A DNA stretch of 64,000 bases from Moniliella sp. 'wahieum'. Its lineage: Eukaryota; Basidiomycota; Moniliellomycetes; Moniliellales; Moniliellaceae. The translations under genes and the position numbers were made by a program. The notes beneath the pieces are model-generated. The model ran no database searches. It worked only from the letters and a program-made list of their open reading frames with translations, and was not told where the DNA came from. The number at the start of each line of letters is the position of its first letter. The first letter of the stretch is position 1. The DNA is taken from contig RSEE01000022.1 of assembly GCA_003971905.1 (NCBI GenBank), positions 708,226 through 772,225 on the forward strand, written 5' to 3'. Below are positions 1 through 64,000 of the stretch, piece after piece.

Positions 1-214
1 ATCGAGGGGTACGCTTCCACCACCAGCACTTCCCTCTCCCTCTCAGCTTCCACTTCTCGCCACCACCTCACCATTTTCCCTTCCATTCGTTTCATCCACG
101 CTCCCAGTCTACCTCTTCATCCCGCTTCATCTCTGTCTTCGATATACCCTCTGCATCCCCCCTCCCAGTCGTCCGTGCGCCCGCTACACCACGGCATTTC
201 ATCCATTTGCCTTC

Positions 215-1072
215 ATGACCGTCGCTCTACCTCATCCGGTTATGCCCTCTCGTCCCTCTGCAATGGCCAATTCTCCCCTCATCACCCGTGTTCTCGTGCT
301 GCGCGACTTTCACGTCGAGCTCAAAACTCACGACATCGTCGCTATCTTCCATCCCTGGGAAGATGACCATGGCGGCTTCAAGATCAAATGGTTCGACGAT
401 TCCTGCGTCTACGTTATCTTTGCTGACCCTGCAACCAGTACGTTTGCTTAACCCTCCCCTCCCTCCCTTCCCCTTCCCTCCCTTCCCTCCCCTCCTCCCC
501 TCTTCCTCACCACCCCCATCCCATATTCATACTGCATAATGCTCACGCTGTCCTCACGCGGTACTAGCCAAGCGGGATATCTTACCCGTCTCCTCCACCC
601 GCACCCAGGATTCAAGAATGCTCCCGGAAAGAAGGCCCTGATACGGCCTTATTATGGTGCCAATCTGGACGCCATCCTCGCAGCGGTCCAAAACCGATCG
701 CCGAGCCGGATGCGGGGCGTGCATGTTCGCAAGAGCAGCTCGGCCAACTCCTTGACATCTATCCCTGAACACCCTGAGCTTGTTGCACCGGGGCTTCTAC
801 CGAAAGGTTTGCACAACCACATTGTCTCTCCGAGCGTCGTTGCGTCGACAAGGTCGCCTGTGTTGCCCAACTCCGTCGCTCCGACATCCCAAGGTGGCCG
901 GATGACAGGCCTGCCCGCCAAACCTTCCCATTCTACCATACCGGCGGGCACTCCGGTTCCCAGCAACAACTCTCACCGATCCAGGCACAGTGTCGCCTCG
1001 GCTGCAAGTCGCAATGTGCCCCTGTCCCGCTGGGCACAGACGCGCAGGACTCGGACAAGAAGACGATGGTGA
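215..1072 (+). CDS. R3HCC1-like protein (C-terminal RRM-like segment), frameshifted
   Basis: Role unknown; the animal relatives (R3H and coiled-coil domain-containing protein 1 family) are poorly characterised RNA-binding-type proteins. The recognisable block comes early: ITRVLVLRDFHVELKTHD followed by FKIKWFDDSCVYVIFADP, matching the family pattern of a short strand, 'F..E.KT.D', then 'KWVDDTHALGVF'. No R3H domain is visible, so this is either a short form or lacks an upstream exon. The first exon ends at 437; an intron (GTACGT donor) runs 438-567; exon 2 resumes as TKRGYLTRLLHPHPGFK only if one G is added to the GGG at about 575. The rest is a basic, Ser-rich tail. Start 215 gives the longest reading; ATG 263 has a better context (G at -3, G at +4) and may be the real start. 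Confidence 0.6.
438..567 (+). other. spliceosomal intron in the R3HCC1-like gene
   Basis: GTACGT donor and a pyrimidine-rich body ending in TAG. Removing it joins ATT-type codons to the KRGYL exon with the codon split after its first base. Confidence 0.6.
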
Positions 1073-1528
1073 CTAGCCCGCCTGCGTTGTCGGCGTCTTG
1101 ATGGCTGTCGTTGATTGTTGGCCATTGTTCTACCCATTTTGTACACACTCCCCACCCACTCTAGGCCCATTGCGATTGCGGTAGTAGCAGTAGATAGGAA
1201 CATCTGGGAAAGCCACGTTCCCCCCAGCTAGCATGGCAGATGGGGCATACGAGGGCTGCTTGGCTTGTCCATCTCCTCAGGCTTGACTTGGGTTTGATGG
1301 CCGAGCATCGTATGTTTTGTGCGCAGCTAATAAAAGCTAGGCCGGTGTCACACGCCAGACAGCGGAATGGGCGGAACGGGGCCGAGAAGAACACGCTGGA
1401 TTTTTCAAAGTGCCCGTCAGAACAACTTTTCTTTTTTTTCCTTCACCCAGCCTCCTTGGACTCGTCTTCCTGCTACTCCTTTTTGTGCACCTCCTTCTCC
1501 TCCTCTTCGTCCCCTTCTTTTCGTAAGC

Positions 1529-3402
1529 ATGGCCGACTCTGAGATGCACAACCAGGCGTTTGCTGCCGCGCGCCAGGCGACCTGCCTGCTCTTCATGCTG
1601 CGCTCGCCGCGTCCAACGCTCCTGCGCTCACCACCACCGACCAGGGCCAGACGCTGCTTCAGGCTGCCTCCAGCGCCGGCCAGGCCGACATCGTGCGCGA
1701 TCTCTTGGCTCGTGGTATGTTGCCAACGTCTTGTTTCGGCTGCCGCCCCCGTCTCTCTTCCACTGACACAGCCCATTTCGTCAGGTGCCGATCCGGCGCA
1801 GGTTGACCTCGAGCAGGTCCGTGCTCACCCGGCTGTTGCGGCTGTGCTCACCCACTTTTCCGCCGAGCCTGAGAACCCGCCCCCACCTGCTCTTCCCGTT
1901 CCCCTGCACCTCATATGGTGGTTCCTGGGCCTGGATACTTCTACCCCCCTCCTCCGGGCCAAGTTCCGCCCGAGTTCCCGCCCGCGTTTGTTGGGCCGGA
2001 CGGCATGATGTTGCCTCCTCCGCCGATGATGCCGCATGCCATGCGGCCTCCACCTGCTGGTGCGCCGCCGGAATGGGTTCGCTTCCTCCTCCGAGGTGGC
2101 ACGGACTATCCCCTGCCGCTTCTTCCCGCAATGCCGGTATGGCGATCAGTGCTATTCTTCCACCGCCCACCATGGCCAACGTCCCACCGCCCGAGGGAGA
2201 AGAAGGTGTGCCAATGTTCTACCCGCTCCCGGCTTTGCGTATCCCTTCCCGCCCGCTCCGGGCCAGATGTACATGCCACCTGTGATGGGGTACGGGGCAC
2301 CGCCGCCGCCGCCGCCACCCCACGCACCGGGCCCGCAAGTGGCTGTGCCCGCTGCCCACCCAGGCTGCGCCCGTCATGCACTCTGTGCCGTTCCTCCTCG
2401 CCCCTCCGACAGGGGAGAGTGCTGCCGTACCAGAGCCTTTGGCCCCTGGCACCCTGCCTCAGGCACTGACGCAGCCCCGGCTGTGCCACAAGCCGCCGCT
2501 GCGGCCCCGACAGCGGTCAAGCGGATGCAGCGCCGTTTGAGCCTTCGCTGCCGCGAATGGGTGCGCCGATGCACCTGCCTCTCGAGGGCCGTCCCTACCG
2601 GAAACTTCGTGGCACGGGCCGTCCTACGAAGCGCTCCGGACCCATGCCTCCCTGCCGCTACTTCCCTCATGGCATCTGCAACAAGGGCGACGATTGCGCC
2701 TTCCCTCACATCCTGCCCGATGGAACGGATGTATCGGGCCGCTCGGGTGCTGGTCCGCACGGCGGCCCACCCAGCGCATCCGCGCAGGAAGGGCGATCGG
2801 CGTCTGACGCGCCCAAGACGGACGACGAACCCCGTTCGACTCGCCCGGCCTCCGGCACCGTACTCGCAAGCCCGCGAAATTGGCTCCTCAACCTTCCCTC
2901 TCTTCCGCTGACTTCCCTGCCCTCGCCGGTGCATGAACCCCTGCCACCCCGCCCGCGGAAGAGAGACGAAGGAGCCCAAGAAGAATTTCTCTGACATTGT
3001 CTCTGCTTCTGCCGAAAAGGCCGAGGCTGAGAAGCCCGAGCCCAAGGAGCCCAAGGAATCTCAGGAGCCAAGAAGCCCCAGCTTGATGCCAAGACGGAGA
3101 CTAAATCTGAAACCAAGACCCCGAAGGAGTCTCAGCCCGAGCAGACAAACAAGACGGGCCTCCCGCTCGGCGCCAGTGAGTCCCAGACACCGACCACTGC
3201 CCAACCCTCGAAACGGGAGCAGCAGCAGTCTCAGCCTGCCTCTGCTGATACGCCTGCCCCGACGACCAAGGTGGAGACCGAGGATGAGTTCACCTTGGTC
3301 AAGGCGCGTAACACCAAGCGGGGATCCTATGGCTCGTGGGGACGTTCCCGCCCCGGCCGCACGTTCCAGAAAAACGGCAAACCGGCTGCAATGGCTGCTT
3401 GA
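1529..3402 (+). CDS. Ankyrin-type and twin CCCH zinc-finger protein, several frameshifts
   Basis: Probably an mRNA-binding regulator. ATG 1529 has A at -3 and G at +4. Exon 1 encodes an ankyrin-like helix pair (DQGQTLLQAASSAGQADIV, then LLARGADPAQVD across the intron 1715-1784). A Pro/Met-rich linker follows. A first CCCH finger lies near 2115-2165: CRFFPQCRYGDQC then a His reached after one frame correction (C-x5-C-x5-C-x3-H). A second finger lies at about 2650-2710: CRYFPHGICNKGDDCAFPH (C-x7-C-x5-C-x3-H). The tail is Glu/Lys/Pro-rich and ends TFQKNGKPAAMAA. Frame losses are evident at CAG(G)GCGACC near 1577, at a C run near 1908, and later. Plant ankyrin-TZF proteins carry the same two spacings in the opposite order. 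The function is inferred from domains only. Confidence 0.8.
1715..1784 (+). other. 70-nt intron in the ankyrin/CCCH gene
   Basis: GTATGT donor and CAG acceptor. Splicing restores the ankyrin-like LLARGADPAQVD sequence with a Gly codon split across the junction. Confidence 0.85.
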
Positions 3403-14294: not shown

Positions 14295-15435
14295 GGATTT
14301 AGGCTTGGTTTTCCGTCCGCGAGCGGCTTGTTCCCCGCGAGGCCTGGAAGAGTTCACTTTTGACGGACAACTCCTGGCCCATATCGGTGGTGTGACAAAA
14401 AGTTTGTCCAAATTCTGTTGACGGTGTTCCTGAAGCCGACTTGCATGGTCGACCCTGCGTCGTCGCAATTTCGATTTGGCGGTACGTTTTATGTGCTTAC
14501 ACTGGTCATGACCTTGCTACCCCCTAACCTAACCCATTGCTTTGGAGAAGGTGGTCACAGGAGAGATGGTGGATGTGGGGTCCTGGGTGCTGAGGGGGCA
14601 TCAAGTTTGAAGCGCAACGTTTAAGGCAGCGATGGCGGAAGTTGATGTGTGGCCGCAGGCCAGCCAATGGACACCCTAACCCACCCCAAAATGCATTTGA
14701 TCGAACTTAGGATTAAACAAGTGCGAATTGCTTGGATATATACCCTTGGCGCAAACACGAGGTTAAGCTAAGTACTTCTATTATAGCGAGATTTGGATAC
14801 TGGCCAAACGAGGTACAGATTATGGCCGTGCTTTTAAACCATTTTTTCCGGGAACTTGGTTTATCCCATACCCACCCCGCAGCCGTGATTGAAACGGCAA
14901 CCCAGCAAGACCACACCTTGGTCGTAATATATGGAAGGAAGCTGTCCAAACGAAAGCGGAAGAACCGGCCAAGCAGAAAAGGAATTGATAACCTCAGTCC
15001 CTGCGCTCCAGGCTCAAGCTAGCGCCACTCTTTTTGTGGAGCAGTGGCGTGTATAAAGCCTGGGTGGCGAGAGCGAGAGACGGACGCCGATTTGCCAAGA
15101 CAACAAAACGTGGGGCCGCGTGTGGTTGAGACAACGTCGATCATGCGGCAACGCACGGCGGCAGCCATCGCTGCTTTCTCCATTTCATTTCCGCTGGCTG
15201 TGCGGGGCACTGCCTGGGGCGGCTGAAATGTTGCAAGCCCCGCAGGGGGCCACTGTCTCCGTCGCCGGGTGGCCCGCGGACGATTCCACATGCCACGCCC
15301 GGTGGCCAACCCTAACCGCCGCTCCCCGAGCGCTGAGCTAAGCGCAGCCGGAGCTGAGCAGCGCAGCCACCCCGCCCGGCTGCCGCGGCCACCACCACCT
15401 GTGCCGAACTGCTTCCCCTGCGCGCCTCGGCGACG
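14295..15435. other. Intergenic sequence upstream of the Ssh4-like gene
   Basis: No gene supported. It presumably holds the promoter of the gene starting at 15436; no clear element is seen. Confidence 0.5.
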
Positions 15436-17649
15436 ATGTCCGCCACCCGTCGCGTGTCGTCGCGCTGGGCGCACCTAGTGCGCTCCGCTTCATGCATGCC
15501 AGCCCTGCTCTCCTTCGCCCTTGTTCTCGCTGCCGCGCCCGCACCCGCCGCCGCCGCCCCTGTCCCGATGGTTGAAGACCCCGGCGAGACGCTGATCATT
15601 GTGCTCCCGTTGCTGATCCTGCTGGCAACGATGATGTGTGTATTGGTGCTCTTTGCGATCCTAGTCCTTATATTGCGTCGCAACGCCCGCATTGCCCTTT
15701 CGGATCTTCGCATGCCTGCCGACATTTTGCGCGATGAGGACGAGGCCGGTCCGCGCGCACTGCAGGAGAGGCAAGAGGCTTATCTTTCCTCCCTCGACGA
15801 CGCTTCGCGCCGTGGCTTCTTGCGTAGCCAAGCCTGGGCTCGCACTCATCCGATTGGCAGCGTTCCTACCGACATTACGCTCGGCCAGCTGCTGAGCATC
15901 CAAGAAAAGGGCGTAGCCGCCTGGTCTTTTGAGCCCGACTACGAGGCCAACCCACCTCTGTACGTCGAGGGTCGTACAGAAATCACATTTCTATCCGATG
16001 GAGATGGTCTTGCTCCTCAAGAAGGCGGTGCCGTGTGTGTACAGAGCAACCTGCCAATCCCGAAGCTCAACGAAGTGTACTACTTTGAGGTCAAGATGTT
16101 CAACAAGCCCGATTCAACCAACGTTGCCATTGGGCTGACGACCAAGCCGTACCCGAGCTTCCGTTTGCCTGGTAAGCGACCTACTCTCCTTCGCAACAGT
16201 AAAGACACTAACTTGACTTTTGTATGCAAAGGCCTGCTCAAGTACTCGATTGGCTACTATAGTCTAGATGGCACCAAGTGTCACAACCAGCCTTGGTCTG
16301 AGGAGCCATACAGTGTTCCTTACCGACAGGGGGATGTAATCGGTCTTGGCTATCGTCCTCGGCTGGGAGTGTCTTTTTTACCCGCAACGGCAAGCGTTTG
16401 AAGATGCGTTTGTGGGACTTAATCGACACAACTTCTTCCCCACTGTCGCCGCTGATGGGCCAGCTGAGGTGCATGTCAATCTGGGACAAGCCGGGTTCGT
16501 CTTTATCGAAGCAAATGTGAAAAAGTGGGGTTTGGCTCCCATGGTGGGTAACTTGCCTCCTCCTCCGGCCTACGGCGTGGACGGAGGTAGTGTCCTCATC
16601 CAAACCGCCGATGATGCTGAGGCTAGCAGAACAGCTGGACCGGCAGATGCGGAACTGCTACAGTCTCTCCCGCCTCCTCCCCCCATTTCACCTTTACTTG
16701 GCGCTGTGGAGGCGCTTCATGCCCCGTTGGAGGGAACCGCCCACCTTTTGCGCCCAGGAGTTAGCCAGGCTGGACCCAGTCGGGTTCCGATGCTGGACGA
16801 GGCGGAAGGGGGTGACGACAGTATGTCTATCTCCTCGGATCCGTCTTACTATGCTTTACCCACGCCACGGGAACATGGCATGGACATTTCTCTCCACTCG
16901 CTTTTGCCTCCCTCGGGCCCAAGTGACGGAGAGCAACGTACTCCACCCCCACCACCGCATGGTGTTACAAGTCATACCACCACCCATGCCGCGCCGAGAG
17001 ATTACTTCTCCCGTCCAACTTCACCGCCACCCTATTCTCCTTTTGCCAATGACCGCCGTCCTCCGTCTGGATGGGGCTCTCTCTTGAGTTGGATACGTCC
17101 AAGGACCGGAGGAAGCGAGGAGGCACCTTTAACTGGGGCTGGTTCCCTCCGCTTCCCTGCTGATCGTGCACAAATTATGCATCCTTCTGGGTCCGACACT
17201 AGCGGCGCGGGCCAAGTCAGCACTGCGTCTCGGGTGCCCCCACGGTCGCACACCTTGGCTGCGGCCTTGGTCAACTCACTCGAGCAGAGCGGACTATTTG
17301 TCCCCCTCCACCAGGCTCCGCACCTACAGCCCATCGCCCTCGCGTTGAGCCCCCACCACTGTGCCCCACGGGTACCCGCCCACCTGGTCCCAGCCCAGCC
17401 ACTCGACGACCTTCATCCATTGCGGTGTCCTCTCCTGCTTCGGTAACCTCACCTCACCCACCCCCGCTTGAAGAAAGGGCCGAATCCAATCATGGTCTAG
17501 GGTCTGATTCGGACTCGAGCAACCTTCTCGCACAGCAGGAGGAGGGGACGCAATCATCTCACATGGACCCACCACCTTCCTCTTCCAGCGACCTCACACC
17601 TACAATCTTGGTTCATGCGCCGTCGTCCGGGCCGTTGGGCTCGCCCTAG
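15436..17649 (+). CDS. Ssh4/Ear1-type SPRY membrane adaptor, frameshifted
   Basis: A likely endosomal/vacuolar adaptor that recruits the Rsp5 ubiquitin ligase to membrane proteins. The N-terminus has a signal-like hydrophobic stretch, then one strong transmembrane helix (about residues 50-76, LIIVLPLLILLATMMC onwards). The SPRY/B30.2 domain spans about residues 165-340: WSFEPDYEANPPLYVEGRTE, YYFEVKMFNKPDSTNVAIGL, LKYSIGYYSLDGTKCHNQ, GDVIGLGYRPR, then FFTRNGKR after correction. Two PY motifs (LPPPPAYG near 16560 and SPPPYSP near 17030) fit Rsp5 WW-domain binding. The tail is Ser/Pro-rich. Two bases are missing, one in the GGG near 16367 and one in the TTT near 16397; a third shift lies near 17330. 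Stop TAG is at 17647. Confidence 0.87.
16172..16231 (+). other. 60-nt intron within the SPRY domain
   Basis: GTAAGC donor, ACTAACTTGAC branch region and AAAG acceptor. Splicing joins FRLPG to LLKYSIGYY. The length is a multiple of three with no stop, so retention would stay in frame. Confidence 0.8.
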
Positions 17650-20029: not shown

Positions 20030-22373
20030 ATGATGCGGATCGTGAGTGCCCGCGCACTTGCGCTGCCCCTCGCGTGTCCCTCTGCGCGCCAGCGAGTGCC
20101 CGAAGACTCCATGTGTACCCTGCATGTCTGAACCGGCGATGCGCCCTAGGCCCATGGGCAACGCCTGCCGCGGAAAGCCAGCTCGACCTCGGTACCGTCG
20201 CCGCTACTGTGGTGGCCTCCCTCGCACGGGAAGACTGACTGTTGCGTCTGCCGTTCCTTCTGATGCGATACCCTCACACGATGGGTTTCGGTGCCTACCC
20301 ATCGACAGGGGCCTCGTCGAGAACCTGGTTCGGCAACTTACTGCCCGCAATGCCCTTCGTCTCGATACCAACAATAGCACTGAACCGTTGAAGCCCTCCT
20401 CCGTGCAGCGTGCTGCCTACCGACACTTTTTTACCGAGCGTGAATCGTTCAGGCATCGCAAGAGCCTTCCTTGGGCGTCTCTGTTCCGCCGCGAACCTGG
20501 CTTTCTCTCCCCATGCTCCGGGCACGTCGACCCTGATTGGGGGCGAAAACCGGCGGGGGCAAAACACTTGCGTATTTGCTTCCCTTGCTGCAACGATTGT
20601 TGGCAACGCCGATTGATTCTGAGAAGAGTACGGAGGTGCTCCAAACGGGCGATCGGGGGATGGAGATGGAGAGGAAGAGGAAGGTGAAGAGGAATGGACC
20701 GAGGAAGAAATGGCCTCGTTTGACCCTACGTCCGGCGAAGAGGACATGGGGATCTTGTCGGGTGGTCGGATGAGGAAGTGGAAGACTTGGAAGCGTTTAT
20801 GAAGGCCAAGGCCAAGGCCCAGTTCATTCCCAAAGCCAGCGATGTCAGGGGGGGATTCGAATCCGATTCGGAGGCTGCGATGCGCGAACGAGAGGCGGTC
20901 GCATTGAAAGAGGAGTTAAATGCGTGGAATCCCAAGACCAAGAAAGAGCCTGACTTTGTTGTTTTGCCGCGGAGCGTCATCCTTGCCCCGACGCATGAAC
21001 TGGCGCGGCAAATCGAGGCCAACGTCAAATCCTTAGCACGGAAGGTGCCGCTCCGTACTCTCTGTACCAGCCGAGCCAAGTGGATCGAAACGCTGAGGAA
21101 GGACGTGCGAAAGATGAAGGAGGGAAATGGGGCGAGGTGCGGCCAGTGGATGTGCTGGTCAGCACCCCGGCCGGCTACTGGACTTGGTCACTTCGCCAAC
21201 CGAGAGCCGAGAAGTTCAAGGCACTCCATGAAAAGCATACCCGCTCCCTCGATGTGCTGGCAGCCGAGCAACTTGAGAAGCAGTACGAAAAGGCACGAAA
21301 GAATCAACTTATCTCCCTTGATGGAGTAAAGGCATTTGTGTGTGATGAGGCGGACACGTTGTGGGACGTGTACCACTACGAGAGCACACGTCAACTTGTC
21401 CGGATGGTGTACGATGACCGTATTCAAGCCTGGCGAGAAGGGGGGGACTTTCTACCCCTCGCTCCGGCCGATGTCATTCATGTTACGGCATCGGTCACAC
21501 CGCCTTTAAGAAACAGCTGACCAACCGGTTCCCAGCGACGGTCAATGTGTTGTCCAACTTCCTTCACCAGCTGCCCTCCACGGTGCGGGTTAAGTATGTT
21601 CCTACCCTACCCACCTTCAACGATGCGTTTGTCAACCAAGTGGCGGAGGCACTCGATTCCGATCCTACTGGCCGGTCCAAAGTCCTGGTCGTAACAGAAA
21701 AACGCGAGTCGGTCCAGTGGGCGGCCAAAGTGCTCGACCGGGTCAAGATTCCGTATGTAACCTAAATTGCCCTTGGTGTGATTCGAGCCAAACTAACGTT
21801 CGAGTGCAGGAACTGTTCTTTGGTGAGCGAGTCGCGCGAATACAGTATCACCAGCAACGAGGATATGGCCGGGTTTGTTCTCGATCCGCGGCGGATGACG
21901 CTGGATGGCGAAACAGGTTCCGACGCGGGTGCTATGAAACGGAAATCTTCTCCCCTGCTCCCAAAAGAAGAAGAAGGAAGAACCTCGTGTTCTCATCACC
22001 ACTTCTCACCTAACTCGAGGCATTGACTTTTCGCCTTTGGTGACCCACGTGATTGTGCCCGACTCGAAGCCCAAGGCATTGGCCAAAATTGTGCCGACCA
22101 TGTCGGAGCGACATGTGACGGACACGATGGAGCTCTTGCACCGTGCTGGCCGGGTGGGACGGGCGGGTGAGGGCCACATTGGTGTTGCTGGACAAGGTGG
22201 ATGTTGAGACTGGCCAACCGTTGATCAGCAAGCAAGATCGCGCCCGTGGTACCTCCTCGGTCCGGTTCCAGAAAGGTACGTACTATCCGGCCGACCAAGC
22301 TGAGCGATTGGGAGAAAAAGGTGCACCGGCCTCAAAAAGACTGGACAAGCTACAAGAGACGAAAGTGATGTGA
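20030..22373 (+). CDS. Mrh4-like DEAD-box RNA helicase, frameshifted
   Basis: An ATP-dependent RNA helicase, likely mitochondrial (Mrh4 group, large-subunit ribosome assembly). The proposed start MMRIVSARALALPLACPS is basic and lacks acidic residues, like a presequence. Motifs in order: Q-like region near 20390 (LKPSSVQ), motif I GAKTGGGKT near 20540, an acidic insert of about 90 residues (EEEEGEEEW...WSDEEVEDLEAF), motif Ia PTHELARQ near 20991, STPAG near 21160, motif II VCDEADTLWD near 21340, motif III-like HVTASVTP near 21478, LVVTEKRES, then LITTSHLTRGIDFSPLV near 21995 and motif VI HRAGRVGRAGE near 22139. It ends LDKLQETKVM. Frame changes occur near 20560, 20760 (GGG, one G lost), 21130, 21515, 21990 and 22165. 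The start could also lie further upstream at 19895. Confidence 0.87.
21757..21809 (+). other. 53-nt intron in the helicase gene
   Basis: GTAACC donor, CTAAC branch site 17 nt before the CAG acceptor. It contains an in-frame stop. It splits the helicase C-terminal RecA-like domain after KIPY. Confidence 0.7.
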
Positions 22374-30671: not shown

Positions 30672-31784
30672 GGCGGAGCACGCGCAGGGCAACGCGAGAG
30701 CCAGCGAGGATGGTCGATGGGGGCGCAGCCGAACAGCGTGGTGGCGGGCCGCATCCAAGCGCGCTGCAATCGAGCGCGCGCACCAGCCGCCCGCGGGGTA
30801 GGCCTTAGGCTTATGGTGCCCGCAGCAATGCGTGGCGCGGGGTGCGCCGCAGCTCCGACGGCCTGACAGCTGCGGCGCACCCCGCCCACGGCGCCCCCCC
30901 GGCACAGCGCCACCCTCGCTCGTTCGCGGCGTTTCGTTCAAATTTCATGCCCCCAGGGCCACAGGGGCAACCCTAGCACCCCCACACATCGCCGCCAGCC
31001 AGCGCCCCAAGCAAAAAAACTATATAACACAGCCCTTGCAGCACGCGCACCGGTAAGGCTACCCCAGTCCGAGCACGCTCCTGTTGGGACGAGCCGTCAA
31101 TGACGTTCCTTTCTCTTGGCCAAGCCTTCTACGCGCTCACCTCGCCTTCCTCCCCCCGCCCCCAGGTTGGTCTAACCGACAACGCCGCCTCCTTCTGGGA
31201 GTAGATGAGCTGCCTGCTGCCCAACAAGGCGTGAGCATTGGGTCAGCCAAATTAAATCCGACAGTTCTGGTGGACAGCCCAAACACCAGAGAGCGATCCC
31301 CAGTCCTACGTGTCTGTGCGCCAATCGTCGCCTCTTGCCCAGGTGAATCGGTTGCCACCGCGTGGTCTCACCCAATTGTCAATATTTCCTTTGCGACGAT
31401 AGATATAGTCGTCCCGTGCTGGGGTTTATCTTTCCTTTCTATGGTTGCCCGTGCGGCAACGCCCTGTTCTCCCTGCATGTCCCATCAGTTCTTCCTCTAT
31501 TGTGTTGTTTCCCTATCTATAAGCAATGGTTCGTAGTTTTCCTCCACGGTCCATTGGCGTCCTCCTCTCTGTTCTCGCCAATTGATCAACCCAGTACATA
31601 GATGACTTCTCTCTCTTATCAGGTTTTGCTCCTCCGCTCCTCGACCTCGCCTCCAGCATGGTATCCCGCTTTTAGCTTCTCAGCCAGCCAAGTCGCATGT
31701 GCCCCCCTCGCGCCACGTCGAAACCAATGTTACCTGATGGTTATGAGCCAGAAGTGGTCGTAGTCTGTGGGCATTCGATAACAT

Positions 31785-38231: not shown

Positions 38232-40762
38232 TGTGGGTAGGTGGGTTGGAGGGAGAGAAGGGAGAGAGGGGGCGGGGTTTATAGCCGCGTCAAGCGTCAA
38301 GGGCCACCGCGTAGATCGAACGGGCAGGCGGGAGGGTGGATGGGTGATGGGGGCTGCCGTCGATGACGCATGATGTGGTCTGTGCAGTGTGGCAGCCGCC
38401 GGGCAGAGGCCGGCCGGGGATTGCCGGGTCCATCGTCCACGGCGACGTGTTTTGGTATACAGCGGGTGGCATCAGTTATCAACTTGATAGCTCAGCTGAG
38501 CACACACCAATTTGCCAGACGGCGTCATAACATGTCCATGTCGCCACCCTGTGGCCACCTACCGCAACCTAGAAATGGTCCCAACTAGCCCCCAACGTCC
38601 ACTAGTAGATCAGGCGCTTGCCTGGCGTGGCCCTCGGACCTCAGACTGAGATCCAGAACTCGCAGCCGACAGCCAACGCCCAAAGGTCCATAACTGTCTG
38701 CCCACCCTGGCGCCGGCTAAACAGGTCGTTGGATCCACACTGCGCCTGGGCCAGCCTGGAAATCAAGCCACTTTCAAGCCCCGTCCCGCGTTAGCGCGTC
38801 ACCCATCCACCCTCCGGTTTCCCCCTTCCTCCATCGACCACGGGCCACAGCCCATCGCTTCCGCCTCTCCGCCGGATGGCTGCCGCCTGGTACGCGGGAC
38901 GCCCACTCAGTGTACTCAGTAATACTACTCTGAGATCTGAGACGCTGGGGGGCCCGTGTGCGTGGGAGGCGGTCCCTGGGCCGGGCCAGGGGTGCGCGCC
39001 TAGGCCCTAGGCTAGACTGCTGTTGCCGCCACCCGTACCTGTCCGGACTCCGTGGGCTCCGGCAGGTCTGCGGCGCCGTCGCGCACACCATCCCATGTCA
39101 CGGACATGTCACACTCGGCGGTAACTCAGTGGCAGGAGCCGTCTGGTTCCGAGGCGTTGCATCAGGACGCACTGAGGCTCAGTTGGCCTCAGCACCCTCA
39201 GCACCCCAGTCTCCCCTGGCACATGACGTCATGGGCTGGTCGATGGTGTGGGTGGCGGGGGATGATCGATGATGCATGATGCACGATGCATGATGTCGAT
39301 GATGCAGTGGACCAACCGAACTGCATCCTACGACCATGCGTCACGTGCATCAGCATCGAGCACCCTACATAAGGATGAAGCTGATGAAGACGAAGAGGCC
39401 GAGATCAAACGAGGAATAGTAAGATCTAAGATGCCTGAGCAAGAGTATGAAGGAACGATTAATGAGATGGATAAGATGGGATAAGATAAGATGAGATAAG
39501 ATGAAATGAGATGAGATGAGTTGGGAAAACATGAGATAAGATGGAATGAGATGAGATGATCAACGAGATGAGAAGAGATGATGAGAAGGATGAGAGGTAG
39601 CACGGGATGGGATGAAAAAAGGCACGAATGATGGATGAGGCCTGAGGCTACTAGTAACAGGAAGTAAGGATGAAGCAAAAGTGGAATGGAGGAAGGAAAT
39701 GGAGGGAGATGACTGGAAAGAAGGGGACGAGAGGGGAGAGGAGAGGAGGGGGGGGCAAGCCCAAGTCCAAGCCCAAACCAACCCCATCATACCTACCCAC
39801 ACAGCATCACCAAAGGGACCTGTGGGGGGGTAGGATCGACTCGAGGTGGGGAGTCGAAGGATGTTTCTTAGTTCAGCCTGCGAGAGCGACCATCCCATCC
39901 CATCCCATCCCGTCCCATCGCGTTCCGTCGGGTTCCGTCGGTCGGGTCGGGTCGCACGCGACCCACTCACCTACTACCCGAGGCCGAGACCCACGAGGGA
40001 ACTTGTGCTACCAGTGACGCTGGTGGTCGAACCGCTGCACCTGGGTCGCGGACCCGGGCGATCATCGAGCATGTCAACAAAGCTATGCGACAAGGACAAG
40101 GGTACATCCAACCGTCGCTGTCTTCCCCTCCACCTCCCCATCTCCGTTCCCATCTCCGTCACCGTCCTGGTCCCTTGGCCCTCAGCTTCTGCACCCACCA
40201 TGGGAGCAGGCTGAGCGTGCGCTTCAGCTGCCCTCGGCTTCTGCACGTAACTCCATCCGCCTTGCAATCCGTTTGAGCCGCACGCCTTCGCTCGTGGGAC
40301 TCGGCAAGGCATAGCCATAGCCATGGGGATGACCGTGCGTCAAGCGCGCCAAGCGTGGCGCAGAAGGGGGAGACGCCACCCCAGCGGGGCGGACCGCGGG
40401 GCGCGGTCCAGACTCTCCGGGGGGAAGGGCGATGCGGGCTGGGTCGTGGCCGTGGCCGTGGTGGCCGTGGTGGTGGATGGGGTGGTAGGTGTCGATGAGG
40501 AGGAAGTAGATTCGCGCTGGCTCGGGCTGGGCGGGACGTGGTGCCGAGGCGTACGAGGCAGGGCTAAGGGGGCGAACGCGTGGCTGGAACCAAGCGGGTC
40601 GAGCGGGTCGAGCGGGTCCAGTGGGTCGAGTGGTCGAACGGGTCGGGGTGGGAGGTAGACGGGGGGGAAGTAAGTACGCTCGTGGAACTGCGGGACAAGC
40701 GCAGTGGATGGTCAGACGCGGTGCGTGCGCCCAAGCCGGTCAAGCGCGTACTGGCACTAGTG
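38232..40762. other. Intergenic stretch with simple repeats
   Basis: No independent gene supported. It contains ATGATGCATGATGCACGATG near 39265, an imperfect GATGA/GATAA purine array at 39470-39610, and a GGGTCGAGC 9-mer tandem near 40595-40640. The minus strand at 39974-40760 has coding-like stretches (VPLSLSHSFVDMLDDRPGP) that may be the true C-terminus of the kelch/BTB gene. Confidence 0.5.
39470..39610 (+). repeat. Degenerate GATRA pentamer array
   Basis: Purine-rich run of GATAAGATG and GATGAGATG units with slips over about 140 bp. Confidence 0.85.
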
Positions 40763-43700
40763 CTAGCTGCTGCTGCTGGTGGAGCCAGTGGGAAGGGACG
40801 TATCAACCGCCGGAGGAGGGGACGGGGCGCGCGCGCCACCCGTCAGGCGGTACATCGCCAAGTCCTGTACCGATGAGCGGGGGGAAAGCCGTCCCATGAG
40901 CCCGGGCGCCAACCCCGACGCTGACGCTGACGCCGTGCCGGGACTGGTGCCCAAGATGGAGGGCGAGCCGAGCGGGTCGGAAGGCATCCTGCTCTTCACG
41001 GCTTGGGCGTACGAGCCACCCGGGCCCGGGAAGTCTGGGTCCCAACCGCGCTCGTGCTCGTCCACAGTCTGGGGCCGGGGTTCCGCACCTGGGCCGGGAG
41101 CTCGTCCACCCGCCGCTGACACACCCGACGGCGCGAGGGGGGGCACGGACTCGGCCACGGACGAGGACAAGGACTTGGACGCGCCTGCCCCCCCGCCCCA
41201 CCGACCGGGGAGCAAGCTACTGCTCGCTGCGCAGCGGCCGTGCTGGGCGGTAAGAATCCGGTGCCGGTGCCGGTGCTGGTGCTGGCGCGTGAGCAAAGGC
41301 AAAAGGAAGCGAGCTGCGCACCGTTTGTGCGGCCCTTGAAGCGGGGTGGGGTAGTAGGCTGCTACTACTAGTTGGCAAGGTAACCTGTGATGCAGGTTGG
41401 CTAATGCGAGGACCTAAGCGGTCCAAGCCCAAACTTTTTTTCAATTGGATCACCGTCCGGAACGCATGGATCTGTACCGCCCTGGCCTCGGCTAAGGCCG
41501 CAGCGTCAACGATGGCTTGGGCCAGCTGCAGGCGGGTTTGGTTGGGAAGCGCGAGGGTTAGGGATAAGGCGTGGGACTGGGACGACTGGGGTAGAGTAGG
41601 GGCAGGGTCGCGGTCGAAGGAGAACGAGTGGGAGTGCGAGTGCGAGGGTGGGAGCGGGGCCAAGTCGTTGGTCAGTGCGTGGTGCAGAGCGTGGGCGCAC
41701 CAGCGTGCCAAGTCGGGCAGGTGGTAGATGCGAGCCAAGAGGAGCAAAGCGGAGCTGATACGAGGGTGGCGCTGGAGGGGGGGGGTAGCGAGCGTCAAGG
41801 TATAAAAGTAGAGCAACAACGAACGCACTACATCAGGAGGTTCAGGCAAGATGAGTCTGCGCGGGGTGGTGAGACGGACATCCGACTTGCCCAGTCGCAG
41901 TACCATCGCTTCTTCCTCTTGACCTTCCTCGGCGGAGGTACGAACGAGGTGAAGTGCTCGTCCGCGGTAGGTGCGCATCGCGTCCCGAAACCATGGCCAG
42001 CGACGTTCCAATAGCGCACGCCACGTGCCCACCCTCGTCCCGTCTTGGCAGATCACTTCAAAGTCGCCTTGTGCGCCTATACTGCTCGCCAAGCCAGACG
42101 ACCTACCAGCCGACGTTTCCACCCGCCTGGACCGGCGCCTACGGCCGAGGAGGCGGGGAGAGAAGACCCAAATGGACACACGGGCGGGCCTAACGATCCA
42201 CCGCGCGTCGCGCCAGGCGTAGCAGCAGGGGTTGTACGAGTGTCAAAGCGGGTGTAGCGGTGTGTAGCGGGTAGCGGTAGCGGTAGTGCTGTCGGCTGCT
42301 GCTGTGCTACCATCTTGGGCGGTCGAAAGCATCATGTCAATGCCCAGCTCGATGGTCCAGGGTGCGACCTGCGCCAGAGGGGGCTGGTAGATCCCCATGC
42401 TTCCAAGTCCAACGCAGCTAGCTGGTGCATGTTGACCTGACGAGCTTGGTAGTCGGTGGCCAAGTCGCGCGAGCGCAAGCCAAGATCAACATACGATTCT
42501 CCTGACGGTTCAAGAGGGCTTTGTTCCACGATCCGGTACTGAGCAACGTGCCGCGTCCAAGCGGGTCCAGCGCAGCTGACTCAACTGCAGCGCCACAGCG
42601 CATGCGTTTGAGTCGTACTGCCCAAATGGGTGCCGGAAACAAGTAGTAGATGATCACCTACCACGTACCCGGTCGGAAACCGCAAGCCTGGAGGCACAGG
42701 TACCAAACTCTCCCTTTCTCTGTCCCTGTCTCTGCCCTTGTCCCTGTCACCACCTGGGAACGCTGGCTGGGATCCACGACGACCCTGGACCATTCGCGCA
42801 CCGAGGTCTTCAATGGTCAACTGACACAGGTGCCCGGTAGCATCCTGCTCGTATTGGAACAAGAGCAACTCGCGCTGCACGTTGGAGAAGCGCGAGTTGG
42901 AGTAGAGCAGTACGGGCGGCAACCGTTTTTTCGCAGGCGACGAGGTTGAGGTGAGGAGGTGGTGGAAGAGATGGAGGTGAACGAAGAAGAAGAGGAAGAG
43001 GAGGAGGAGGAGGATGAAAAAAGAAGAAGAAGAAGAGAAGGAAGGAGGGAAGGAGAGGAGGAAGGCGGTACGGACGTGTGGGCAAATGGAACACTGAACG
43101 GTAACCGCCGTAGATCGGTCAGGCCCAGGTTCAAATCCTTCTCGCGCGTCACGGTGTCCAAGGTGGGAGTGGTAGATTGAGACCGTTCCAAAGCTTCGAG
43201 CGATTTTTGCAAACCTCGTACCGGCCGAAGCAAAGGAGCTATCCGGGCGCAGCGGCAGGCCATGCGCGACCGAAGACCGGCGTACGTCGGACGCCGCAGC
43301 GGAAGCGGAGGAAAGGGCAGAGGCAGGTAAAGTGGTAGAGCTCAAGGGGGAAAGCGCACCGCTAGCTGTCGAGGTCCGACGACTTGTTGAGGGCAGTGCC
43401 CCGCCCCGCCCCGCGATTGGAGCCAACAAGGCCATTGCGTTGATGAGGCAGGTCCGATCGCGTCGGCGGATTCGGACGTTCGCCACCCACTACGATTTCG
43501 CGTCCTTGGCCATCGAATACGGCCCACGGTACAGGCGCCAACAAAGAGCGGTAGCATCCGAACTTACCCTTGAGTGGGTCGGTGCGCAGCCATCGCGACT
43601 GGCGCAAACTGAACAAGTTGGCTTGCATAATGTACTCGTTCTGTGCGTCTTGGCCGCCAACAACCAACAGGTAGTCGCCCACGACGGCGCTGAGGTGGGC

Positions 43701-44404
43701 GTAGCGCGCCGTAGGCCGCGGCGGGGGCACATCGCTATTGGGAGGGTGATCATAGCTCAAGTCCCACGTTTGGGTGGTCAAGTCGAACGCAATGATTTCA
43801 GACAAGGTTGCCAGTCCATCAGCCGCTGGGGCCGAGGTGCCGTGGGCCAAGGACGTGGCGTGCCCGATCGACCAGTATCGGTTTCACTGGCGCGTGGGGT
43901 GCGCAGCGTGATGTGATGGTCTCGGACGATTCGCGCTCACTTTGGGGCCGGGGACCGAGCGCCATGCCGCCCGAGATGAGCAGACGACCGTCCCAGACGT
44001 TGGCGGCGTGAAAGTAGCGCGGCTGGGGCCAGGCACCAGAGGAAAGGAGAGGATCGTTGGCGATGGCCAACTCGCTGGGCTCGTCTGCCTCGTGGTTGGC
44101 AAGGACGATGGCTGCGTCGGGTCCGGGGCCGAGGAAGGACCAAATGCGAGTGGTGAGGTTGAGCACGTAGAGAGGGCATTGGTTAGTCTGCGGTCGCTGA
44201 GGCGGCCACCAAAGACGTAGAGGCACGCTTCCCCCTTGGAGGAGGTGCCTGGACCCGATTCGACGACAGTGGTGGATGCGCCCTGGGGGGGGAGGGGCAG
44301 CAAATGGTTAGGAGGGCGAGGAAGAAAGACGGGGGAAGGAGGGCGTAAATCAGCGGAGGCGGGATGGTGCCGGTTGTGGTGAGCAGAAAGAAACGAGGAG
44401 GCAT
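40763..44404 (-). CDS. Kelch-repeat and BTB protein (Ral2-like), frameshifted
   Basis: Likely a signalling or ubiquitin-ligase adaptor; S. pombe Ral2 (Ras activation) has the same order of kelch repeats then BTB. Kelch units read ACLYVFGGRLSDRRLTNAL / LYVLNLTTRIWSFLGPGP near 44230-44100, ARYFHAANVWDGRLLISGG-like near 44000, IIAFDLTTQTWDLSYD.. ARYAHLSAVVGDYLLVVGGQ near 43800-43650, then FPTGYVVGDHLLLVSGTH near 42670. A Glu-rich tract and a short helix (LQKSLEALERSQST) sit between. The BTB domain is near 42080-41680: GDFEVICQDGTRVGTWRALL, RLILPEPPDVVRSLLLYFYT, ALLLLARIYHLPDLARWCAH. The C-terminal tail is Ser/Gly/Pro-rich. Start 44404 is tentative, and at least six frame changes are needed. The tail may run past 40763. 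Confidence 0.8.
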
Positions 44405-45319
44405 CAGCGAGGGAGGGGGGCTGGGCGCGGGGCTGGGGCTGGGGGGAAGGAGTGTTGGTGATGGGGCTGGGGCGGATGAGAGGGAGAAGGAGCGAGGGGG
44501 GGCGGGCGGGGGGGAGGCGGATCCGCTGTCGGTGCGGGTGCGAGGAAGGGGCGCATGGGCGGGGGGGGTGGAGGCGGAGAAGGAGGGAGCGGGAGAGGGA
44601 GAGGGAGAGGAAGAGGGAGAGGAGAGGGAGAGGAGAGGAGCGAAGTGGGAGGCAAAAGGACGCACGCCAGCGGGACAGAGAGCAGAAGAGAAGACAAGAG
44701 AACAGAACAGACAGATGACAGAACCGACGACCAACGACGGCTGCCGCTGAAATTCAGCCTGCGCTGCTCGTCGAGGACGCAAAGAAAGACAGAAGCGCCT
44801 GCCAGGGGCTGTTGCGCACCGCACGCTGGCCGACTGCTGCTGCGCCCCCGCCCCGGCCCCCCCGCCGACACGGCTTGTGGCGTTATATATGTGCTGCCCA
44901 TCCCACACACCTCACTCGTCACTCGTCACTCGCAGTGGTAGTAGCACTAGCACGGCCTAACCCCCCCCCACCCCCAAGTGTGATAGTGGATCTCAATCAC
45001 CACCGCCTCCACGTGGCTGCCCGCACGCTGCCCCCCGCTGCCTGCCCCGACAGCCACGCCACATCCTCCGCCTACGTACGCCTTTTCAGATCTGAATCTG
45101 CGATCTGGATCTGAGCCCAGCTGGCCTCCGCCATCCATTGCATCCATCATCCATCATCCATCATCCGCCCATCCGCCATTAGACATCCGCCCCCCTCCGC
45201 CTCCTCTGCTGCCTGGGTGCGCAGGCGGCGCAGACGCACACTTTGCACATCCGGATCCTGCGGCCCCGTCTTGTCTGCATCTGTCCACACCCGCACCCCT
45301 CGCTCGTCAGCACCAGCAC
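44405..45319. other. Intergenic sequence between two minus-strand genes
   Basis: Purine-rich low complexity at 44560-44650 (GGGAGAGGGAGAG units) and ATCCATC units near 45135. It holds the promoter of the kelch/BTB gene; no element is recognised. Confidence 0.5.
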
Positions 45320-52531: not shown

Positions 52532-53674
52532 TTCCATTCCCATTCCATTCCCATTCCCATTCCCATTCCATTCCGTTCTATCCCGTACCAGCACGCATCT
52601 CGTCCTGACCTGTTCTTTCCTCCTCGCGCGCATCTGTTTTCTTTGGGCTTCCTCGCCTCGGCATCGCGCCATCGTGCCATCGTGTCGTCCCACCTCGTTC
52701 TTACCCTTTTGGACCGCAGCCTCTGGGCCACCAGCGGCCTTGACCGACCTGTACTCGGTTGGTTCACTGGCACTTTGTTCTGTTCCACGAGATATCACGT
52801 GTCCATGTCATCAATCTCCAATCCTCAATCTCCAATCCTCAATCCTCAATCCTCGATCCTCAATCTTCGATCCGGATCCCCACCATTATATGGATTCTTC
52901 CTGAACATGATATTGAACGTCGAACGTCGAACGTCGAACTTGAACGGTGAACCTGTTTACTCCTCATTTGTTTGTATTTTCTCCCTCTCGCCCTCCTGCT
53001 GTCCTGTCAATCTCCAGTCCGTTTTGCTCCTGTTGGCACCTTTTTGCACCTGCTTGCGCTTGCTTTCTCTTCTTTTCTCTTGTCTTCTCTTGTGTCCTCT
53101 TGCTTTGCACGTTACGCGTTCACGCGCCACGGTGATCCCCACCTAGGTTTCCTCTGCTTCCTGCCACTTTCCGAGTGTAGTCTGTGCCTAGACTAGGTGT
53201 TTCCTACTACCTACTATCACAGTATTGTCCAGTCCTTGAGCGGTAGCACGCGGTATAACAGGAGCGGGAAGATCCGGGGGGCATGGGGAGCACAAAACCT
53301 GATGTTAGTCGGTGGTTCTTCGGTACATGGTACGTGGTACGTGGCGCGTGGTACATGGTACGTGGGGTACCTCATGGATGCCCTCAATTATGGGAGAAAA
53401 TGGTATGGACATTCCTGGCACCGTATAATAAACGAAAGGAAGGCTTAAGCGAGCCCAGTACCGTTTCAAGAGGACAGAAGAGTGATCGGGACATGCAAGT
53501 AAACCGCTCGGACTGTAAAACGGTGCGGGTGGGAAAACGCGGTGGCAAGTCCCTTTCTCCATCCTCGCTCGACTCGTTGGGGTAAAAGAGGAACCGAGAC
53601 AGAGGCAGAGACGGAACGGAGACGGAGACAGTGAGGGAGTCCAATGAGGAGACGGAGGTGGGGGGGACAAGGAG
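52532..53674. other. Convergent intergenic region with simple repeats
   Basis: (CCATT)n at 52535-52580, a run of AATCCTC units at 52812-52870, GAACGTCGAACGTCGAACTT near 52915, and TACGTGGTACATGG-type repeats near 53330. No gene. Confidence 0.7.
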
Positions 53675-57912: not shown

Positions 57913-58432
57913 ATGAAGCACGTCGCCGCTTACCTTCTTCTTGTCTCGGGTGGCAACACCGCCCCGTCCGCTAAGGACGTCACTGCCCTCCTCGCCACTG
58001 TCGGCATTGAGCCCGACACGGAGCGCCTCGACAAGGTCGTTGCTGAATTGGCTGGCAAGGACGTTTCGGAGGTACGTTTTTCCTTTCCTTTTATTTTCTT
58101 TTCTCTTTCTCGCCGCCTTTGTCCTCCAACTCCCATGTGGACCGTTTCTGTCATATGGGCCGGCTAGGACATGGGTTTACCTGTACAAGTTATCGGGCCT
58201 AGCCCCACCCTGCACACACTTGACAAACTAACCCTACCCTATTTGACCGTTCGCAGCTGATTGCCGCTGGCGCTGAGAAGCTCGCTTCCGTGCCTGCTGG
58301 TGGTGCTGTGGCTGCGGCCCCGGCGGCCGGTGGCGCCGCTGCGGCCACCGACGCTCCTGCTGCCGAGGAGAAGAAGAGGAGAAGGAAGAAGAAGAGTCGG
58401 ACGATGACATGGGCTTTGGTCTGTTTGACTAA
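57913..58432 (+). CDS. RPP2: 60S acidic ribosomal protein P2, one frameshift
   Basis: Part of the ribosomal stalk that binds and activates translational GTPases. Exon 1 (57913-58071) reads MKHVAAYLLLVSGGNTAPSA, KDVTALLATVGIEPDTERLD, KVVAELAGKDVSE; exon 2 (from 58257) continues LIAAGAEKLASVPAGGAVAA and an Ala/Gly hinge. The universally conserved end EESDDDMGFGLFD is encoded at 58393-58429 but one frame away: adding one G in the GAAGAAG(G)AGGAG stretch near 58373 restores it and uses the TAA at 58430. As sequenced, the reading would give a basic tail lacking the GTPase-binding acidic motif. Since P2 is almost certainly functional, this is best read as a sequence error. The ATG sits in a strong context (CATCACC before it). 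Confidence 0.97.
58072..58256 (+). other. 185-nt intron in P2
   Basis: GTACGT donor, CAAACTAACCC branch site near 58225, CGCAG acceptor. Splicing gives KDVSE-LIAAGAEK as in other P2 proteins. Confidence 0.95.
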
Positions 58433-60699: not shown

Positions 60700-62306
60700 G
60701 GGGGGCTGTGGAGGGGGGGAAGGTGGTAGAGGGGGGAGCAGGCAGGCCCGAGCGGTGTGGGACCGAGGCGGATGCTCGATGCGCTGAACGGGAGCTGGGG
60801 CTGCAGCGGTGCGAGCGAGGTGCGGGTGCAGAGGGCTGCCCCCGTGCCTGCGGGCCCCACACGCGGCCCAGAGGCGCGGCGGCAGGGGGCGCATATTCGA
60901 TCACTGTCAATCCCACTAAGACTAATGCGCCCGCCGGCCTGCGCGCTACTGCCTGTGCTCACGCCGAGCAACCCGCAGGCAGGGGGGCAGTCCCCGGCTG
61001 CCTGCCCAGATTCTCTACCGCACCCTGCGTCCCCAGCCGCCTTGGCGCCCTGTACATTTCAAACCAGACGCACTGCCCCGCCTGCCTTTCCGCCGTCCTG
61101 CCTCCCCGATCCGCCCAGAGTAGCCTAACCGGCCTAACCTTTAACCCCTCACTCTCTCGCCGCCTGCCTCTCGCTCCGGGGTGCACCACCCCGTCACCCG
61201 CCCACCCACTGGCTCCCTGCGCCTCTGTCGTGAGGCTGACGGAGTGTCGCCCATGCCCGGTACTTCCACCAACATCTTATGCTCCTCTCCCGGGGTTAGG
61301 CTGAGGCCTGAGGATTGAGGCCTCCAGCGCTCACACTTCAACAGCGCTCCGACGTCAGGAGAGGACACAACTGGACAGCTGGACAGAGGGCGCGCTACAG
61401 TGTACTCCCCAGACGGCTTTGCTTGATGCCGTCATGCACATGCACATGCATCATGGTGGTCTCTGGCTCTGAAGAGTGACGATGGAAGATGCGAGTAGGT
61501 GGCGTCGTGCCATATACGTGGATCCCATACCACTGCAGGCCAGCTCCATTCATCATGGAGATAGATCGATGCATAGATGCAAGGAGGCAAGGATGATCCA
61601 TGGTCAATGGCCAATGGTCAATGGTCCAATGATCAATGGTCAATAGATGACATGTGACATGGTCCCGGTCAAGGTCAATGGTCAATAGATGTGATGGTAA
61701 AGGTCAAATGGCCCGTGATATGCACGAGGATGAGAAACAACACTGTACGGCACCCGTACGTCCCTAGGCAGCAGCACGATGCAAGCCAAGAAAGGTCTGG
61801 GAGCAGCGGGGGGGGGGCAGGGTAAGGCAGAAGGGGGTTCAAGCTTCACGTTAGATGGGGCATGATGAGATGAGATCTGAGATCTGAGAGGCGGCGGTAG
61901 CAGGTAAAAGTACAAGATGCGGCACATATACCGGAGGTGGGAAGGCACAAAGACACAAAGCACAAAGGCACAAAAGTGACAAAGGGAAAAGGGGCAGGGG
62001 GGGGGAAGAGGTGGGCGGGGGCAATCATGGACAAGGTGTACAGGAGCAAACCGAGCGGGCAGCCGGGGGACAGAACAAGAGACAGAGGGGGAGAAAGAGA
62101 CAGTATGATCCGCGCGACTACTGGTCAGGCGCAGGATGGGAGAGGGCACAGCCGAGGCAGGAGCCGGTGCCGAAGGCGCGCCCACGAAGGGCGTGGGTAA
62201 TGTGGGTGGGGGCTGTGCAAGGGGTGCGGTGGACGGGGCGGGGGTTGGACGACCCGACTGTACTGGGTGGGTGGATGACGACGGAAAGTGGGTTCTTGGA
62301 AAAAAC
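60700..62306. other. Intergenic stretch; may include the end of the RRM gene
   Basis: No separate gene supported. TGGTCAATGGCCAATGGTCA repeats lie at 61595-61690. The RRM gene's C-terminus probably extends past 62306 (see that entry). Confidence 0.5.
61595..61690 (+). repeat. GGTCAATG short tandem repeats
   Basis: Repeated GGTCAATGG and CAATGGTCAAT units with slips. Confidence 0.8.
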
Positions 62307-63950
62307 TCAGACGAAGACCAGGAGTTTGACCCGTCCGTCGAGCATATGACCATTGAGCGTTTGTCGTGCGTTCGAAGCGGCTGAGACCGAGTCAAACTCA
62401 ACGAAACATACGGGGCCTCCTCCACTCCCGCCTCCTGAACTGGCAGTAGGAGGCAGATTCGAAAAGAGTATCATCTCTTTCTCTCCTTCTCCCGACTTGG
62501 CCGAGGACATTACACGGAATGCCATCGCACGGTACCCAGGTTGCGAAGCAAATAGCGCCCGTGCGCCTCTTCCAATTTCTTCCGCTTGGCTTCCCCGCCT
62601 GCCGCCGCGGAATTGGGCAAGTTGCCTACAAACAATGTTGTCCCAGGGGGATTATGGTCCCCAATCCCCACAGGGCCGGTGGAACGTGGACGAAGGGCGC
62701 TTGGGATTGGGAGACGGGAACTGGACCAGGACCGGTCAGGGGGACACTGGGGTTCACCCCCAGCCCTGCAAACCCGGAATGGGGCAGTGGCAGGCGGGAT
62801 GAAGGGATCCGGACTGGAGGCACCGCGGTGACTGGGACCGGGGTTACGATGGGAGGAGAAAGCGCGTAACGTGCTTGGAGGGGGCAAGCGACCGCCTGAT
62901 ACGGACCATCGCCCCCCCGTCGATAAAGGACAGGGGGGCAGGGGGCCACCCAGCATAGGCCAATCAGGAAGAGGGGGAACATCCCGCATCCACTCTGGTC
63001 CATTCGGAGGCGCAGATGGTACCCATTCTCGCCCCATACTGGTGGTGGTGGTGGACCGCATCGTACGACGCCACCTACGCCTGGGTCAAAGGCCAATCTT
63101 CTTCTGTTTCGTCCCAGTCGGTCGACGAGCCTGGGGTGAAACGCGGTGCACTTTCCAGAGCCGCGCCGATTGACGGTGGCGCATCCGAGGGGAACGATGA
63201 TAATCCCGGGGAGAGACCTGCGCACTGGAACCACCCAGGCCCATGCCAGGACTGAGAGGCAAAGGAGGGGGGGACAGATACCGTTCCTCGTCTTCGTAGC
63301 GTGAAGCAGTGGGGAAAAGGCACGTAGGCCTCGAGGTGGCAAAAGGGTAGGAGGGGCGGAGATGGCGCCGCAGAGGGTGGGGGCCGAAGCGCTTGGTGTG
63401 CGGTTTTTCTTGGCCATCTCCGTCTTGAGCACTGCGCCGCGGTCGGGATCAACTTTGCGTCCATGCAGGCTGTCGCGCGCAGAAAGGGCGTCGGCGCGAG
63501 TGCGAAAGCGGGCAAATCCAATGTCTGCTTGAGCTTGGCTGGTGATTGGACACAGCAGCGTGGGAAGGCGGGGGTGGGGGCTTGAGGGTAGCCGCCTCAA
63601 ACCAGGGGCAAAGAGGAAGAGGTTGTGGAACTCGCGATCGGTCATGTCATCGGGGAATCCAACGATGAAGACGGTGGTGATGTCTTCGGTGGGTAAGACG
63701 GGAGGAGGGAGGCGGCATGGCCTGTTCCGGCACGGCCACGTTCTGGGCTGGGCTCGGGAGGAGTGGGGAGGAGAGGAGGCTGTCGCGCCAGCCCAGCGCT
63801 CGGCGGTGGCGGGAGCGGGAGCGGGGGCGGGGCGGGAGCGGAGCCGGAGTGGGAGCCGCCGGAGCGGGAGCGGGATCGGGAGCGGAAGCGGGTGGGCGGG
63901 AGAGCGGCCGAGATGCTGGCCGACGGAGCAGGACGCATCCTATCGGCCAT
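62307..63950 (-). CDS. Two-RRM protein of the Scw1/Whi3 type, frameshifted
   Basis: An mRNA-binding regulator; relatives act in cell-wall integrity (S. pombe Scw1) and cell size (yeast Whi3). Start MADRMRPAPSASISAALPPT (ATG 63950), then an Arg/Ser stretch (RFRSRSRSRSGG) and Pro-rich linker. RRM1 near 63680-63400: TVFIVGFPDDMTDREFHNLF, then IGFARFRTRADALSARDSLH, GRKVDPDRGAVLKTEMAKKN, closely following the family pattern. A long Pro/Gly-rich linker follows. RRM2 near 62670-62320: NPPGTTLFVGNLP, a basic alpha-1 region, GGPVCFVEFDSVSAASNARQ, TLNGHMLDGRV. Just past the stop at 62307 the sequence gives FSKNPLS, the conserved end of this RRM, so the true C-terminus lies further downstream after one more frame change. 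Other shifts lie near 63590, 63400, 62800 and 62560. Confidence 0.85.
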
Positions 63951-64000
63951 GGTGGCGAGGGCGAGGGCGAGGCGGCGGCGGCGAGGCGGAGGCGGCGGAG
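63951..64000. other. 5' flank of the RRM gene at the window edge
   Basis: GGCGAGGGCGAGG and GGCGGC repeats only. The promoter continues beyond the window. Confidence 0.6.

What the first reader, a model, noticed from the sequence alone, without database searches (positions are those of the whole stretch)
1..64000. Window-wide -1 frameshifts in almost every conserved gene
Domains in the R3HCC1-like, ankyrin/CCCH, Ssh4-like, helicase, Zn2Cys6, Ecl1-like, kelch/BTB, ligase, hydrolase, MFS, P2, LEA_2 and RRM genes jump frame. Where I can locate the break, adding one base to a short homopolymer (mostly G or C) restores the family sequence, and successive frames step in the same direction. Uniform loss across unrelated genes points to unpolished long-read or similar data. 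It means automated gene calls from this contig would be badly fragmented.
Basis: partly seen in the sequence, partly recalled or inferred. Interest (0 to 1): 0.8.

Follow-up and report, generated by a model that had tools for sequence, protein, structure and literature searches.

The report
Base-skipping errors in draft genome
Genes in this stretch look broken because the draft genome sequence drops or adds one or two bases every few hundred letters, most likely uncorrected long-read sequencing errors rather than anything odd in the organism.

Summary
The frame jumps are in the sequence and are very probably sequencing or consensus errors. The window (69.5 Mb assembly) has a second copy on contig C20. 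Over 40.5 kb the two differ by 2201 substitutions and 642 gaps, 449 of them 1-2 bp; single-base losses are 164 per copy. As divergence falls, 1-2 bp gaps keep a floor (fitted 1.3 per 200 columns), while longer gaps shrink. In nine HSP70 copies 219 of 258 private substitutions are at third codon positions, so the proteins are under selection, yet 8 of 9 copies carry frame-breaking indels: 34 in 17.0 kb, 29 losses and 5 gains. HSP70 and GTP_EFTU searches show 26 frame switches with no room for an intron, on 20 contigs, 19 of the -1 type. Homopolymers are enriched but not universal; the G/C excess is slight. Pseudogenes, introns, programmed frameshifting and RNA editing fit worse. No reads were available.

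The parts
   Evidence: ORF 452-1072; window open in one frame on both sides of 575, sister copy differs by a compensating pair and has its own break about 50 nt on
1411..2900 (+). ankyrin/CCCH-type gene read in several frames; break at ~1577
   Evidence: frameshift HMM segments change frame at 1577, 1718, 1996 and 2210 with no gap; weak Ank_4, CCCH and Torus matches below their cut-offs; C20 copy supports a missing base near 1577 (read by eye)
15358..17446 (+).
   Evidence: SPRY matches profile 2-73/121 and stops before the break; C20 is open across both points and has its own break at the place matching ~16753; 4 frame-breaking gaps in the window and 6 in C20 against 18 substitutions in 16060-17412
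20537..22168 (+). DEAD/Helicase_C gene, fragmented; frame jump at ~20750-20760
   Evidence: partial DEAD and Helicase_C matches below cut-off; frame jump in both copies
30355..30806 (-). Zn2Cys6-like finger with a break at ~30643
   Evidence: C20 copy reads the cysteine motif in one frame, the window lacks one base. Motif name recalled, no profile hit; the HMM calls no jump here
58231..58432 (+). last exon of a P2-type acidic ribosomal protein gene, break at ~58373-58380
Evidence: conserved acidic tail in a different frame from the upstream part of the exon; copies on C46 and C35 open through it, copies on C20, C56 and C59 broken elsewhere.
40353..44680 (-). coding-like stretches that change frame without a gap
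   Evidence: frameshift HMM: jumps at 40619, 40770, 41415, 43373, 43872, 44166; genes not identified

Best explanation
The jumps are base-calling or consensus errors in an insufficiently polished long-read assembly. The caller drops (less often adds) one or two bases, more often in short homopolymers. Each such event in an exon puts the rest of the gene in another frame, mostly -1. Shown: the indels, their mostly different places in different copies, a floor that does not vanish at low divergence, their bias to losses and runs, and selection on broken HSP70 copies. Inferred: that single-molecule reads without short-read polishing are the cause, and that separately assembled copies have thinner coverage.
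For: Sister copy on C20: 40,525 aligned columns, 2201 mismatches, 642 gaps of which 328 are 1 bp, 164 per side. Mean 1-2 bp gaps per 200 columns: 1.75 at 2-3 mismatches, 1.64 at 4-6, 1.93 at 7-10, 2.67 at 11-20, 2.39 above 20; gaps of 3 bp or more in the same bins: 0.35, 0.67, 0.79, 1.12, 2.0. The aligner makes no gap on substitution-only random controls, and 219 single-base and 88 two-base gaps remain at the strictest gap cost tried. Nine HSP70 copies: 219 of 258 private substitutions at codon position 3 (for example 43 of 49, 46 of 56, 53 of 60, 11 of 11, 11 of 12), while 8 of 9 carry frame-breaking indels; L009, used as frame reference because it is open, has none. 29 losses and 5 gains in 16,999 bases. 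26 intron-less frame switches in two conserved families on 20 contigs. SPRY gene: 18 substitutions but 10 frame-breaking gaps and no in-frame gap in 1346 columns. P2: of six copies read, 2 open and 4 broken at different places. Frame-breaking gaps also abound in columns the HMM calls noncoding.
Against: No reads or second assembly. Some HSP70 losses recur at the same spot in different copies: a C run near position 1375 in three copies with a fourth four bases on, near 1844 in two, near 1646-1648 in two. Codon-phase tests of window/C20 mismatches reach p<0.05 in only 1 of 10 regions; mismatches in HMM-coding in-phase columns are 73/73/144 by codon position (7808 columns; 4127 out-of-phase columns set aside), a weaker selection signal than in HSP70. 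Frame-breaking gaps are less dense in coding (111 in 11,935 columns) than in noncoding columns (352 in 22,812), so part of them are real differences under selection. Short gaps do rise somewhat with divergence, and the lowest bins are small: 2, 3 and 20 windows, means 1.0, 3.0 and 1.75. Long G/C runs of 14 and more survive in the genome, so runs are not simply collapsed. Some breaks may be real lesions in redundant copies.
Confidence: 0.95

Rival explanations
1. Real pseudogenes: in a highly duplicated genome most copies are decaying and carry true frameshifts.
For: Many HSP70 copies at 83-97% identity; both window stretches queried have further copies; codon-position bias in window coding calls is only about twofold and phase tests are mostly flat.
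Against: Private substitutions in broken HSP70 copies are mostly at third positions, which decaying copies would not show; short indels keep a floor at low divergence; both sister copies of the same gene are broken at different points.
Confidence: 0.04
2. Ordinary introns make the frames jump.
For: The genome appears to have short introns, for example before the last exon of the P2 gene (splice signals recalled); 16 joins in the two family searches have 25-300 nt between pieces.
Against: 26 joins overlap or leave at most 14 nt and still change frame; C20 is open across four of the listed points.
Confidence: 0.01
3. Programmed frameshifting or insertional RNA editing restores the frames in the cell.
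For: Broken HSP70 genes are under selection; most events are -1; a few HSP70 spots recur in different copies and ~20760 jumps in both copies.
Against: Most break sites differ between copies, with intact copies of the same gene elsewhere; the recurrent spots include homopolymer runs; frame-breaking gaps are also dense in noncoding columns. No motif search was made.
Confidence: 0.005

Closest known systems
Indel errors of long-read assemblies that fragment genes (PMC8445201, passages read; PMC8812927 and PMC12007338, start of abstract in the listing)
   Same: Indels dominate the errors and break reading frames; [quoted passage not shown] PMC8812927 names homopolymer-length errors as the commonest residual error.
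   Different: Here many losses are in no run at all (52 and 76 of 164); the error was inferred from gene copies inside one assembly, without reads.
Collapsed-haplotype artefacts (PMC8445201, passages read)
   Same: Nearby allelic variants can add false indels to a consensus.
   Different: Here two or more copies are already assembled apart and each still carries its own indels. Collapse of further copies within one contig was not tested.

Membership tests
indel error of an unpolished long-read assembly | short indels at different places in different copies, other copies intact | tested here: met
   exceptions: ~20760 in both copies, and a few recurrent HSP70 spots
indel error of an unpolished long-read assembly | density does not vanish at low divergence | tested here: met
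   intercept 1.31 per 200 columns, slope 0.097 for windows with up to 15 mismatches; 1.70 and 0.041 for all 209 windows; lowest bins small
indel error of an unpolished long-read assembly | coding and noncoding sequence both hit, no excess of 3n lengths in exons | tested here: met
   111 of 127 gaps in HMM-coding and 352 of 419 in HMM-noncoding columns are not multiples of 3; density lower in coding
indel error of an unpolished long-read assembly | losses outnumber gains; homopolymers enriched | tested here: met
   29 to 5 in HSP70; 43% (window) and 34% (C20) in runs of 3 or more against 17.6% of window bases
indel error of an unpolished long-read assembly | accurate reads disagree with the consensus | not testable with these tools
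   no reads held
pseudogene | substitutions even over codon positions | tested here: not met
   nine HSP70 copies, 219 of 258 at position 3; window regions inconclusive
programmed frameshift | break site shared by homologous copies | tested here: not met
   different places in the SPRY and P2 genes and mostly in HSP70; ~20760 inconclusive

The most novel reading that the evidence does not exclude
The genome truly lacks these bases and the cell puts frames right by pervasive insertional RNA editing or tolerant frameshifting, at different sites in every gene copy.
Probability: 0.005. Interest if true: 0.95.

Novelty: not a real feature. Interest (0 to 1): 0.1.

Why it matters
Gene calls from this assembly will be split, and gene-loss or pseudogene counts inflated. 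Any other finding in this genome that rests on an exact frame, a premature stop or a fused or split protein should be checked against the other copies first. Comparing gene copies within one assembly (selection on substitutions, a floor of short gaps at low divergence) is a usable test when no reads are at hand.

Tried and rejected
Homopolymer run lengths in the window alone do not look truncated and decide nothing. Codon-phase counts of mismatches by alignment column were mostly flat: of 12 regions listed 10 lay inside alignment blocks, and only the SPRY gene gave p<0.05 (p=0.03); I think false mismatches next to indels blur the phase, but did not test it. tRNA and Rfam (gathering threshold) searches found no RNA gene in the window and no tRNA in nine C20 loci, so errors in structural RNA could not be tested. 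The frameshift HMM was self-trained on these loci and misses or miscalls genes. The break counts have no matching count from an accurate eukaryote genome. Of 30 HSP70 loci cut, nine of one type were analysed for indels and two pairs aligned in full; the rest were only compared by BLAST. Of at least eight P2-like places, six were read.

Full report
What was given. The window is G000:C22:708226-772225 in a 69.5 Mb, 223-contig genome.

The jumps are there. Pfam was run on 11 frame stretches (three + frames of 1-9 kb, three + frames of 13-28 kb, three - frames of 28-43 kb, two - frames of 50-64 kb), not on all six frames. Only SPRY (2-73 of 121) passed its cut-off; DEAD, Helicase_C, Torus, RRM_1, DUF3991, Ank_4 and zf_CCCH_4 were weaker, and all but Ank_4 and zf_CCCH_4 cover part of their profile.

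A second copy. Window 46-52 kb matches C20 at 89-92%. Most of 1-53,195 aligns to the reverse strand of C20, with a rearranged stretch at about 5-15 kb; 53,200-61,200 matches the forward strand of C20, so the pair differs by an inversion. Eight blocks give 40,525 aligned columns, 2201 mismatches and 642 gaps: 328 of 1 bp (164 missing in each copy) and 121 of 2 bp. Random control pairs with substitutions only gave no gaps at 3, 6 and 9% change; at the strictest gap cost tried 219 single-base and 88 two-base gaps remain.

The listed sites. In the SPRY gene the window loses a base at about 16,364 and 16,396 while C20 stays open, and C20 loses one further on where the window stays open. At 1577 and 30,643 C20 supports a missing base in the window (read by eye). 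At 58,373 the last exon of a P2-type ribosomal protein gene is broken; of six copies read, those on C46 and C35 are open through the exon, and those in the window and on C20, C56 and C59 are not. At 20,760 both copies jump within about 10 nt. At 575 the window is open. So 5 of 7 are breaks with an intact copy elsewhere, 1 is a real jump of unsettled cause, 1 is not confirmed.

Error, not decay. An HSP70 search of the genome gave 86 matches; 30 loci were cut, many 83-97% identical to one another. Nine copies of one type were aligned. L009, chosen as reference because it is open for 638 codons, has no indel; the other eight have 2 to 12 frame-breaking indels each. Private substitutions are at codon position 3 in 219 of 258 cases over the nine copies. 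The alignment holds 34 frame-breaking indels in 16,999 bases, 2.0 per kb: 29 losses and 5 gains. Of 21 single-base losses 8 are in no run and 13 are C or G. Most lie at different places, but a C run near 1375 is hit in three copies with a fourth four bases on, and spots near 1844 and 1646-1648 in two each. In two pairs aligned with their flanks, short gaps lie both in the gene and outside it.

Floor of short gaps. Over 209 windows of 200 columns of window and C20, 1-2 bp gaps have a fitted intercept of 1.31 (up to 15 mismatches; 1.70 over all windows), about 3 per kb per copy if shared equally, with a shallow slope; gaps of 3 bp or more go from 0 at 0-1 mismatches (5 windows) to 2.0 above 20 (18 windows). 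Frame-breaking gaps make up 111 of 127 in columns called coding in both copies (11,935 columns) and 352 of 419 in noncoding columns (22,812); 96 further gaps at edges were set aside. The lower coding density says that a part of the gaps are real differences.

Genome-wide. Among 86 HSP70 and 70 GTP_EFTU pieces, 26 neighbours (17 and 9) continue the profile in another frame with -31 to +14 nt between them, on 20 contigs; 19 are the -1 type and 7 the other; no neighbour within that distance kept its frame, and 16 joins have 25-300 nt between pieces, so may be introns. Stops inside pieces: 38 in 18 HSP70 pieces and 6 in 6 GTP_EFTU pieces.

Results against. Codon-phase tests on window regions were flat except for the SPRY gene; mismatches in in-phase coding columns are 73/73/144 by codon position; long G/C runs survive. 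The G/C excess is slight: 111 of 164 single-base losses in the window and 95 of 164 in C20, against 58% G+C. Some breaks could be real lesions in redundant copies.

Literature. PMC8445201 (passages read) reports that indels dominate errors of long-read assemblies and break reading frames, with 98% of error-suggesting variants being indels or complex variants. The others cited were seen in a search listing only; a second search gave nothing that I used.

Noticed in passing
window 49117-50100: Dispersed repeat of about 1 kb found, whole or in part, at dozens of places in the genome at roughly 68-98% identity and missing from the matching place on C20 (only the best candidates were scored).
   Followed up: partly
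window 1-61200 against C20:495270-572932: Two copies of the region at roughly 90% identity that differ by an inversion of about 50 kb or more and a rearranged stretch at about 5-15 kb of the window.
   Followed up: partly
window 50700-60700 against C56:187743-197428 and C59:147027-155758: Two further collinear copies at about 69-86% identity, which suggests an old duplication beneath the recent pair.
   Followed up: partly
window 27591-27989: Hexamer array of about 67 copies that leaves long stop-free stretches in several frames at 27430-28106.
   Followed up: no
G000, HSP70 loci L009-L038: 86 HSP70 matches (genes and pieces), several close together on C6, C21 and C83; no other genome was compared.
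   Followed up: partly
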